A DNA stretch of 44,758 nucleotides, from assembly GCA_027484965.1 (NCBI GenBank), contig JAIXRY010000006.1:194101-238858 (forward strand). Direction: 5' to 3'. The notes under the pieces are model-generated. The model was not told the DNA's origin. It saw nothing but the letters and a program-made list of their open reading frames with translations, and ran no database searches. This stretch comes from a bacterium. GTDB lineage: Bacteria > Patescibacteriota > Minisyncoccia > Phycocordibacterales > UBA9973. The position numbers and the translations under genes were made by a program. Shown here one piece after another: positions 9,394 to 23,420 of the stretch (position 1 is the first letter of the stretch; every line of letters begins with the position of its first letter).

Positions 9394-9464
9394 GGGCGAT
9401 TAGTTTAGTGGTAGAACGAAGGTCTCCAAAACCTTTGGTGAGGGTTCGATTCCTTCATCGCCCG
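9394..9464 (+). tRNA. tRNA-Trp (CCA)
   Basis: Acceptor GGGCGAT/ATCGCCC, anticodon stem AAGGT/ACCTT with loop CTCCAAA (anticodon CCA), T-arm with loop TTCGATT, discriminator G. CCA end not encoded. An extended -10 (TGGTATATT) lies just upstream. UGG is therefore the Trp codon read here. Confidence 0.93.
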
Positions 9465-9471
9465 CAGTCAA

Positions 9472-9496
9472 AAAGACAGCTTCGGCTGTTTTTTTG
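9472..9496 (+). terminator. Terminator after tRNA-Trp
   Basis: Stem ACAGC/GCTGT with a TTCG tetraloop followed by seven T. Confidence 0.85.
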
Positions 9497-9536
9497 TTGG
9501 GCGATAACGAGCAAGCTGCTTTGCTCGTGTGGAGAA

Positions 9537-9578
9537 ACGTCTACAGGTATCCATATATTGCCTTTATGGATTATCGAA
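9537..9578 (+). repeat. Conserved hairpin element, copy 1
   Basis: CGTCTACAGGT is followed by a seven-pair stem (ATCCATA/TATGGAT), a nine-base loop containing TTGCCTT, and ATCGAA. The same arrangement recurs at 23303-23346 with base changes that keep the stem paired. Both copies lie on the plus strand downstream of a tRNA gene. Flanking hairpins (CGAGCAA/TTGCTCG at 9508-9527 and a 15-pair stem at 9582-9617) make the whole interval strongly structured. No known RNA family or recombination site was recognised. Confidence 0.6.
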
Positions 9579-9595
9579 AAGCTTTTCATTATTAT

Positions 9596-9624
9596 TTGTA
9601 ATCAAATAATTGAAAAGGTATACT
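9596..9624 (+). promoter_or_regulatory. Probable promoter of the pyrophosphatase-like gene
   Basis: TTGTAA, 17 bases, TATACT. The -35 overlaps the loop of a strong hairpin at 9582-9617. A short AAGGAA/TTCCTT hairpin lies in the presumed leader. Confidence 0.45.
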
Positions 9625-9658
9625 GTTCCAGTAAGGAAAGATTCCTTCATTTAAATTT

Positions 9659-11078: not shown

Positions 11079-11157
11079 AGACAGACATAAAACAGGATTC
11101 ACCTCTCGCACTGCTGTGCTCGAAATCTTCACTCACTCATCGTGAGTTGCGACCCGC

Positions 11158-11176
11158 GGTTCAAATCCAACCCGGC
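11158..11176 (+). pseudogene. tRNA 3'-end fragment (tRNA-Tyr-like, inverted)
   Basis: Nineteen bases covering a T-loop and 3' acceptor strand match the minus-strand tRNA-Tyr (11214-11232 in inverse orientation) with one mismatch. The 5' side of the T-stem does not pair and no acceptor 5' strand is found upstream, so this is not a working tRNA. Two short palindromes precede it (GCAC/GTGC and ACTCA/TGAGT). Confidence 0.55.
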
Positions 11177-17846: not shown

Positions 17847-17861
17847 AAAAATAAATTGATA

Positions 17862-17889
17862 AAAGCGGGACCCGAAGGGTCCCGCTTTA
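17862..17889 (+). terminator. Terminator of trxB (cassette copy 1)
   Basis: Stem AAAGCGGGACCC/GGGTCCCGCTTT with loop GAA. Part of an 81-base terminator-promoter block repeated at 18682. Confidence 0.9.
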
Positions 17890-17942
17890 CTTTTCCCTAT
17901 TTTAATGTAGAATATGAAAAAATTTAAAATAAAATAATTATG
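17862..17942 (+). repeat. Terminator-promoter cassette, copy 1
   Basis: The 81 bases from the terminator through -35 TTTACT and -10 TAGAAT to the ATG are repeated at 18682-18762 without a single indel and with about ten substitutions. The substitutions in the terminator stem are compensatory (C-G to T-A). Each copy launches an orphan gene. Confidence 0.8.
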
Positions 17943-18662: not shown

Positions 18663-18681
18663 TTGGTAAAATTTATATAGT

Positions 18682-18762
18682 AAAGTGGGACCCTTCGGGT
18701 CCCACTTTACTTTTCCCTATTTTAATGTAGAATAGTAACAAATTTAAAACCAAATAATTATG
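18682..18762 (+). repeat. Terminator-promoter cassette, copy 2
   Basis: Same length and layout as the copy at 17862-17942. The terminator stem reads AAAGTGGGACCC/GGGTCCCACTTT with loop TTC; -35 TTTACT, a 16-base spacer and TAGAAT follow. A terminator for the preceding orphan already exists at 18632, so this hairpin is redundant and probably came along with the promoter. Confidence 0.8.
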
Positions 18763-20674: not shown

Positions 20675-20749
20675 TTTTACGGTCGCACGAAAAGGGTCGT
20701 TTTAGTTTACTAAAATTCACTAAACCGACATTACAGGACAAGGAACACT

Positions 20750-20777
20750 TTGGTTCTATCTGCTGAACGCTCACAAT
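20750..20777 (+). repeat. 28-base direct repeat, copy 1
   Basis: Matches 21529-21556 in the same orientation with one mismatch (CTGCTGAACG against CTGTTGAACG). Both copies run straight into a strong terminator-like hairpin. Confidence 0.75.
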
Positions 20778-21403: not shown

Positions 21404-21528
21404 ATTTTTTAAATTTTATTTAATCATACTACATATACAACATTTGTAAACCTTCTCCTGTATACACAAAAAGATTAATTGTAGCAGAGTAGAATTATCA
21501 GAAATGAGGTTACATAACAATAAACTAT

Positions 21529-21556
21529 TTGGTTCTATCTGTTGAACGCTCACAAT
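21529..21556 (+). repeat. 28-base direct repeat, copy 2
   Basis: Second copy of the unit at 20750-20777, located between two minus-strand genes, and again directly upstream of a hairpin. Confidence 0.75.
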
Positions 21557-23192: not shown

Positions 23193-23264
23193 GCACTATT
23201 AGCTCAGTGGTAGAGCGTTCCATTGACATTGGAAAGGCCAGAAGTTCGATTCTTCTATGGTGCA
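23193..23264 (+). tRNA. tRNA-Val (GAC)
   Basis: Acceptor GCACTAT/ATGGTGC, anticodon stem TTCCA/TGGAA with loop TTGACAT (anticodon GAC), T-arm AGAAG/CTTCT around TTCGATT. The CCA end is not encoded. The second covarying hairpin element follows 38 bases later. Confidence 0.93.
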
Positions 23265-23302
23265 CACATTATATATTTACAAAGTAGTAGTATCGAGTAG
23301 GG

Positions 23303-23346
23303 CCGTCTACAGGTGTCCATCTTATTACCTTGATGGACATAGCGAA
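23303..23346 (+). repeat. Conserved hairpin element, copy 2
   Basis: CGTCTACAGGT and an eight-pair stem (TGTCCATC/GATGGACA) enclose TTATTACCTT, followed by TAGCGAA. Compared with the copy at 9537-9578, two stem positions have changed in both partners (A-T to G-C and A-T to C-G). That is the mark of selection for structure. Confidence 0.6.
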
Positions 23347-23420
23347 CACTTTATATTTTTCAATTTTTAAGAAGAAAAATATTTAGCGATTCGTGACCAA
23401 TTCTTCTATAGTGACCACAA

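What the first reader, a model, noticed from the sequence alone, without database searches (positions are those of the whole stretch)
9537..9578. Covarying hairpin element repeated downstream of two tRNA genes
A block of about 42 bases recurs at 23303-23346: identical CGTCTACAGGT, a hairpin, a CCTT-ended loop and a CGAA tail. Between the copies two stem pairs change on both sides (A-T to G-C, A-T to C-G), so the structure is what is conserved. Both lie on the plus strand, 73 and 38 bases after a tRNA gene. It matches no riboswitch, ribozyme or attachment site I know.
Basis: seen in the sequence. Interest (0 to 1): 0.68.

Follow-up and report, generated by a model that had tools for sequence, protein, structure and literature searches.

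The report
REP-like hairpin inside tRNA-trailer elements
The repeated 42-base hairpin is a tiny interspersed (probably mobile) DNA palindrome of the REP kind found across one order of ultra-small Parcubacteria-type bacteria, and it sits behind two tRNA genes only because it lies inside larger, undescribed elements that carry copies of the end of the tRNA gene beside them.

Summary
The two blocks (9537-9578, 23303-23346) are far more alike than chance and two stem pairs change on both sides. A covariance model finds three more copies in this 796-kb genome and dozens in its order; I collected 61 distinct copies. All share CGTCYACAGG, then a 6-7 bp stem with a loop of about 7 bases. Stem sequence is nearly free (26 variants) but pairing almost perfect: 409 Watson-Crick, 2 G-T, 2 A-C cells, so no sign of RNA wobble. 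Filled/empty site pairs show ~33-34 bp inserted without target duplication, partly into other palindromic repeats. Best reading: a new variant of CGTC-tagged REP-like palindromes, probably moved as single-stranded DNA by a transposase in trans (inferred; none found beside it). It is not tRNA-specific: about 9 of 55 copies follow a tRNA. The tRNA link comes from its carriers: modular elements behind about 15 of 35 tRNA genes here and in many Paceibacteria, each bearing inverted and/or direct copies of its own tRNA's 3' end, tandemly repeated in places, with covarying stems also lacking G-U preference. No Rfam family or paper I found describes the carriers; their mechanism is open.

The parts
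9538..9571 (+). Copy 1 of the repeat: CGTCTACAGGT + stem ATCCATA / loop TATTGCCTT / stem TATGGAT
   Evidence: (model R2, 62.3 bits, E 1.6e-13)
23304..23339 (+). Copy 2 of the repeat: CGTCTACAGG + stem TGTCCATC / loop TTATTACCTT / stem GATGGACA
   Evidence: (model R2, 63.4 bits, E 9.3e-14)
9394..9465 (+). tRNA-Trp(CCA), neighbour of the first carrier
9469..9497 (+). Terminator-like hairpin with T run after tRNA-Trp; copy 1 lies beyond it
9499..9650 (+). Class A carrier behind tRNA-Trp. GGGCGAT (9499-9505, complement of the acceptor 3' strand), hairpin hp1 9507-9528, remnant of the inverted T-arm box interrupted by copy 1, P2 hairpin 9582-9617, P3 hairpin 9626-9638, direct copy of the tRNA-Trp T-arm 3' strand GATTCCTTCAT 9640-9650
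   Evidence: model R1, 75.1 bits, E 5.3e-16
23193..23265 (+). tRNA-Val(GAC), neighbour of the second carrier
23286..23413 (+). Class D carrier behind tRNA-Val: degenerate inverted T-arm box AGTAGTATCGA 23286-23296 (9 of 11), copy 2, hairpin 23348-23396, direct copy ATTCTTCTAT-GTG of the tRNA-Val 3' end 23400-23413 (13 of 14)
   Evidence: class D alignment
11095..11176 (-). Third carrier in the window (class C, without the repeat) behind tRNA-Tyr: inverted copy of the tRNA-Tyr 3' end (18 of 19), then GCGGGTCGC-hairpin-GAAGATTTCGAG-hairpin-GAGAGGTGAATCC

Best explanation
The block is one member of a small interspersed DNA palindrome family of the REP kind: a constant tag (C)CGTCYACAGGTG, then a perfectly paired but freely varying 6-7 bp stem with a loop of about 7 bases. 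Shown: dozens of copies in one order of Parcubacteria-type (Paceibacteria) genomes; insertion without target duplication; stems kept paired without wobble preference. Inferred: it spreads as a non-autonomous element whose hairpin is recognised as single-stranded DNA, most likely by a Y1/HUH (IS200/IS605- or RAYT-like) transposase acting in trans. The two window copies are nested inside larger modular DNA palindromes that sit behind tRNA genes and carry inverted and/or direct copies of the neighbouring tRNA's 3' end; that nesting is why the block looks tRNA-linked.
For: Copies: 5 in this genome, up to 18 in one relative, 15 of 197 relatives and 17 of 397 genomes of the order; 61 distinct copies with 26 stem sequences, 36 preceded by GC and 12 by AC, loops mostly 6-8 bases. 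Covariation: all 6 pairs change on both sides, 0 of 500 shuffles as high. No wobble: 409 Watson-Crick, 2 GT, 2 AC. Insertion: filled and empty versions of a GTCATTGCGAG repeat (L258, L251, L246 against L005; L005 against L258 at a second position) and of a class D carrier (L231 against L193) differ by just the repeat, with no duplicated target beyond 0-1 base. Contexts: intergenic, apparent reading frames, tandem, inside other palindromes. Known parallel: CGTC-tagged REPs are 20-40 bp palindromes, sometimes nested in longer palindromes or genes, with no dedicated transposase (PMC3733652).
Against: No transposase gene lies next to a copy: 22 Y1 loci from seven genomes with copies carry no clear match to the model, and this genome has no Y1 transposase match at all. 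So the mobiliser is inferred and may be extinct here. The 8-base spacer between CGTC and the stem and the loop length differ from described CGTC REPs. Empty sites come from paralogous repeats or carriers, not from the same locus in two strains. Copies in the GT/AC count were picked by a motif plus near-perfect Watson-Crick pairing, which treats GT and AC alike but lowers both.
Confidence: 0.75

Rival explanations
1. The block is a cis-acting RNA (processing signal, attenuator or riboswitch-like hairpin) in tRNA 3' trailers.
For: Both window copies follow tRNA genes on the same strand, and 4 of 5 own-genome copies are in tRNA trailers. Stems covary. The 115-base trailer holding copy 1 folds better than all 200 shuffles (z -4.6).
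Against: About 85% of copies are not behind a tRNA. No G-U preference. Copy 1 lies behind a terminator-like hairpin. The block with its near flanks alone gives z of only about -1.5, so the strong z owes much to neighbouring hairpins. No Rfam match.
Confidence: 0.08
2. The block is an integral domain of the tRNA-trailer carriers (a sub-module of class D) and the scattered copies are broken-off remnants of carriers.
For: In class D carriers the block is repeatedly at the same internal place, between GGG and TCGC (c2, c4, L231, L232, L234, L239).
Against: Class D carriers without it exist (L193 as empty site). It is also in a class A carrier (c1) and precisely inserted in unrelated GTCATTGCGAG repeats, with no carrier sequence around it.
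Confidence: 0.15
3. The carriers are attachment-site relics of integrases that target tRNA genes, and the block is part of such a site.
For: Direct copies of the tRNA 3' end starting in the T-loop (up to 19-20 bases in Val-TAC, Gly, Leu, Cys) look like att cores, and tandem units exist.
Against: All carriers are short and gene-free; each also has an inverted copy of the tRNA end and covarying internal hairpins; they occur behind about 25 kinds of tRNA while this genome has only two tyrosine recombinases. A few sit behind tmRNA or at a ribosomal protein gene end. The block itself lacks tRNA sequence.
Confidence: 0.12
4. The similarity of the two blocks is chance.
For: A looser pattern search of 100 relatives was no better than the reversed-pattern control.
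Against: Shuffles reach 38 at most against 48 observed; a model built from four copies finds dozens more with the same layout.
Confidence: 0.01

Closest known systems
CGTC-tagged REPs (Di Nocera et al. 2013, PMC3733652), including dRS3 of Neisseria and RPE-4/RPE-6 of Rickettsia
   Same: Short (20-40 bp) palindrome with unpaired CGTC at one end; multi-copy; mostly intergenic, some intragenic; can sit inside longer palindromes; no adjacent dedicated transposase (for the family; 78, 81, 98 here).
   Different: Here 8 bases (TACAGGTG) separate CGTC from the stem; stem 6-7 bp without AT in its first two positions; loop about 7 rather than 4-5; tail C or CC rather than CCA; found in Paceibacteria, not among the phyla listed in that paper; stem sequence almost free.
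GTAG REPs / REPINs with RAYT transposases (PMC3116915, PMC8266576)
   Same: Hairpin with a tetranucleotide tag, non-autonomous, intergenic, thought to move via an HUH Y1 transposase (general knowledge and abstracts).
   Different: No GTAG at the expected 5' foot (the reverse strand has GTAG 3' of the hairpin); no RAYT gene flanked by copies.
tRNA-targeted genomic islands (Islander-type, PMC4383910)
   Same: The carriers leave a displaced copy of the tRNA 3' end downstream.
   Different: Carriers are about 90-190 bp, gene-free, hold an inverted copy too, and have conserved internal hairpins.

Membership tests
CGTC-tagged REP | unpaired CGTC at one end of a short palindrome | tested here: met
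   Consensus (C)CGTCYACAGGTG before the stem in the copies found by model R2 and then collected by motif; the 61-copy list was collected with that motif, so the unbiased support is the R2 hits.
CGTC-tagged REP | 20-40 bp size, multiple interspersed copies | tested here: met
   about 31-36 bases; 5 to 18 copies in several genomes
CGTC-tagged REP | stem of 8-9 bp, AT in first two positions, loop of 4-5 | tested here: not met
   stem mostly 6-7 bp starting GTCGAC, GTCCAT, GCCTAT and others; loop mostly 6-8; definition
CGTC-tagged REP | unpaired CCA-like tail | tested here: not met
   base after the stem: C 36, T 18, G 5, A 2; no CCA consensus
CGTC-tagged REP | no transposase gene flanked by copies | tested here: met
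   22 Y1 transposase loci carry no clear copy
RAYT/GTAG REP (REPtron) | RAYT gene flanked by the repeat | tested here: not met
   own genome has no PF01797 match
RAYT/GTAG REP (REPtron) | GTAG at the 5' foot of the hairpin | tested here: not met
   5' tag is CCGTCYACAGGTG
Structured non-coding RNA / riboswitch | match to a described RNA family | tested here: not met
   Rfam 15: no match above gathering score and no credible sub-threshold match at either block; carriers none either
Structured non-coding RNA / riboswitch | stems tolerate G-U on the transcribed strand | tested here: not met
   repeat: GT 2, AC 2 (in the model-fitted set 5 and 1, inconclusive); carriers' P2+P3: GT 27, AC 32, p 0.6; tRNA control GT 77, AC 3
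Structured non-coding RNA / riboswitch | transcribed as a stable RNA | not testable with these tools
   no expression data
tRNA-targeted integrative island | direct repeat of tRNA 3' end flanking an element with an integrase gene | tested here: not met
   direct repeat present in carriers but no room for a gene; only two tyrosine recombinases in the genome

The most novel reading that the evidence does not exclude
The carriers are a new kind of mobile or self-copying DNA element specialised on tRNA genes: a common palindromic core (hp1, P2, P3, or alternative cores) that sits just downstream of many different tRNA genes and, when established there, acquires both an inverted and a direct copy of that tRNA's own 3' end, multiplies in tandem, and serves as a landing site for smaller palindromes such as the block.
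Probability: 0.45. Interest if true: 0.75.

Novelty: new variant of a known kind. Interest (0 to 1): 0.5.

Why it matters
REP-like palindromes are described mainly from Proteobacteria; this gives a defined family in Paceibacteria, with filled and empty sites that make its insertion rule testable: a fixed tag, free stem sequence, perfect pairing, no target duplication. It also shows that covarying hairpins in intergenic DNA need not be RNAs: the G-T versus A-C count separates the two readings and could be applied to other orphan motifs. The carriers matter more: if confirmed, very small genomes keep a class of elements that write copies of a tRNA gene's end, in both orientations, next to many of their tRNA genes, by a mechanism I could not match to a known one.

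Tried and rejected
Rfam at gathering and relaxed thresholds on both blocks: nothing credible. Exact-ends pattern search in 100 relatives: no better than the reversed-pattern control; of its hits L004 is inside a repeated coding region, while L005 turned out to be a genuine copy. Upstream stem P1 seen by RNAfold: not conserved. tmRNA or RNase P association: one carrier each behind tmRNA in L098 and L141; the RNase P RNA in L145 is far away and unrelated. Carrier as expanded-T-loop tRNA, intron, IS110 bridge RNA, integron attC or casposon-type insertion: considered from the anatomy; none fits all of inverted copy, direct copy and variable cores, and none was shown. Y1 transposase flanked by copies: not found. 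Literature on palindromic repeats or tRNA-trailer elements in these bacteria: nothing specific found; the library is open-access only.

Full report
Observation. Their alignment score of 48 is beyond anything in 200 dinucleotide shuffles of the window (maximum 38). Two stem pairs differ by changes on both sides. Rfam 15 has nothing at either block. A search of the same genome with a pattern anchored on both ends gave only these two copies, and in 100 relatives such a pattern did no better than its reversed control.

More copies in the genome. Reading the trailers of the other tRNA genes showed two more copies, behind tRNA-Leu(TAA) (L022) and tRNA-Gly(TCC) (L008). From these four (alignment A7; 3 of 7 pairs changed on both sides) I built model R2. 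It finds a fifth own-genome copy (C7:67836-67885) and copies in 15 of 197 relatives, several of them multi-copy (18 in G098, 9 in G532), and again in 17 of 397 genomes of the order (12 in G837, 8 in G821).

What the repeat is. I collected 61 distinct copies. They share CGTC[CTG]ACAGG (this motif was used to collect them), a base C before it in nearly all, then usually one T, a stem of 6-7 bp, a loop mostly of 6-8 bases, and the second arm. There are 26 different stem sequences. Pairing is almost perfect: 409 Watson-Crick cells, 2 G-T, 2 A-C, 1 other. Copies were required to have at most one non-Watson-Crick pair, which limits both G-T and A-C but does not favour either. On the model-aligned set all 6 modelled pairs change on both sides and no shuffle of 500 does as well. 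A functional RNA hairpin should accept G-U on its transcribed strand more readily than A-C; here neither is accepted. That points to a DNA palindrome or single-stranded DNA hairpin. In the smaller model-fitted set the counts are 5 against 1, too few to decide alone.

It inserts. Joining the flanks of copies gives sequences that exist without the unit: L258, L251 and L246 against an empty GTCATTGCGAG repeat in L005; L005 (a second position in the same repeat) against an empty one in L258; and L231 against the class D carrier in L193 that lacks it. The unit removed is 33-34 bp and no target is duplicated beyond 0-1 base. In L307 it stands in the middle of a GTCATTCCCGCG...CGGGAATC palindrome, which looks like the described CGTC-1/dRS3 type (identification from memory of that consensus). 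Two copies stand in what look like open reading frames (L233, L247; the frames were read by eye from the sequence). These empty sites are paralogous, not the same locus in two strains.

Comparison with known families. Di Nocera et al. 2013 (PMC3733652) sort short prokaryotic palindromes into GTAG- and CGTC-tagged super-families. Ours shares the unpaired CGTC at one end, size, interspersion, nesting in other palindromes, intragenic copies and the lack of a neighbouring transposase. It differs in having 8 bases between tag and stem, a shorter stem not starting with AT, a longer loop and no CCA tail; and the CGTC phyla listed there do not include these bacteria. I therefore call it a new variant of a known kind and not a member of CGTC-1 to CGTC-4. 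Seven of eight copy-bearing genomes searched have Y1 transposase matches, but no copy of the repeat lies clearly within the ~1.5 kb held on each side, and this genome has no match. Movement by such an enzyme in trans is my inference.

Why it is behind tRNA genes. Many tRNA genes of this genome are followed by partial copies of their own 3' end: direct ones (for example 19 bases behind tRNA-Val(TAC), 17 behind tRNA-Gln) and inverted ones (23 behind tRNA-Lys, 22 behind tRNA-Arg(GCG)). Matching 35 tRNAs to 35 trailers, the own-trailer scores sum to 338; 20,000 random pairings gave 246.6 +/- 8.6, maximum 294. About 15 trailers stand out. The copies flank common cores. Class A, the commonest, reads: inverted acceptor box, hairpin hp1, inverted T-arm box, P2 hairpin (GAAAAGCTTTT...AAAAGG), TACTG, P3 hairpin with a GTA loop, direct T-arm copy. 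Model R1 of class A (16 of 27 pairs with changes on both sides) hits 10 of 380 genomes drawn from the phylum, all of the same order. A pattern scan of 84,980 genomes gave 94 stretches, mostly titled Nomura-, Kaiser-, Taylor-, Zambryski- or Vogelbacteria or Paceibacterota. Of 98 hits, 61 lie 35-115 bases behind a same-strand tRNA where about 2.7 would be expected by chance, and they cover about 25 kinds of tRNA. In these 61, the direct copy scores 11.8 for the own tRNA against 6.3 +/- 0.2 for shuffled partners, and the inverted copy 11.3 against 7.2 +/- 0.2.

Behaviour of the carriers. They are patchy among species of one genus. They form exact tandem units (L100, L198, L060) and 3'-truncated second units (L060, L051). 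They also occur behind tmRNA (L098, L141) and at the end of a gene that reads as ribosomal protein L11 (L094). In 112 class A copies 25 of 27 pairs change on both sides, yet in P2 and P3 G-T pairs (27) are no commoner than A-C (32, p 0.6), while tRNA acceptor stems from the same loci give 77 against 3. The class A alignment is fitted to a model that prefers G-U to A-C, so that comparison is conservative; the tRNA control required at least 6 of 7 standard pairs, which favours G-T somewhat. I read the carriers as DNA-level palindromes too. How one core comes to bear both orientations of each different tRNA's end is unexplained.

How the window copies fit. Copy 1 interrupts the inverted T-arm box of a class A carrier behind tRNA-Trp (R1 match 9568-9648); copy 2 lies in a class D carrier behind tRNA-Val at the place where L231, L232, L234 and L239 also have it. 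A third carrier without the repeat follows tRNA-Tyr (11176-11095, - strand).

Verdict. Real, structured, conserved through its pairing; most likely a small mobile DNA palindrome and not an RNA. Ordinary in kind, new as a family, and a pointer to a more unusual set of tRNA-trailer elements.

Noticed in passing
window 20686-20777 and 21465-21556 (+): Two intergenic 92-base repeats, 72% identical, ending ..TTTGGTTCTATCTGyTGAACGCTCACAAT before a terminator; a relative exists in L173 (score 74). No credible Rfam match. Not tRNA-adjacent; may be another structured element.
   Followed up: partly
window 17848-17942 and 18668-18762: Repeated terminator hairpin plus promoter-like region, 83% identical, in front of two genes.
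   Followed up: no
L042 (own genome, tRNA-Leu(TAG)): Two different class A-type carriers in tandem behind one tRNA, each preceded by a terminator-like palindrome.
   Followed up: partly
L060 and L051 (G007, G009): Second, 3'-truncated copy of the carrier directly after the direct tRNA-end copy; polarity of truncation might reveal the copying mechanism.
   Followed up: no
L094: Class A carrier at the stop codon of a gene reading as ribosomal protein L11, with a direct copy of the gene's last bases (GACGTCAAATAAG).
   Followed up: no
L233 and L247: Copies of the repeat in apparently open reading frames (translation ..GPSTG..), as described for Rickettsia palindromic elements.
   Followed up: no
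L109 and L188: Group I introns just upstream of carriers, apparently in tRNA genes that ARAGORN then misses.
   Followed up: no
L148, L150, L185: Carriers in contigs labelled Burkholderiales and Paraglaciecola; probably misbinned Paceibacteria contigs.
   Followed up: no
one search hit list: ARAGORN reports one tRNA with anticodon TTA (stop) in front of a carrier; possible suppressor tRNA or pseudogene.
   Followed up: no
L139 6743-6867: LOOT RNA (RF03000) in the same contig stretch as two carriers.
   Followed up: no
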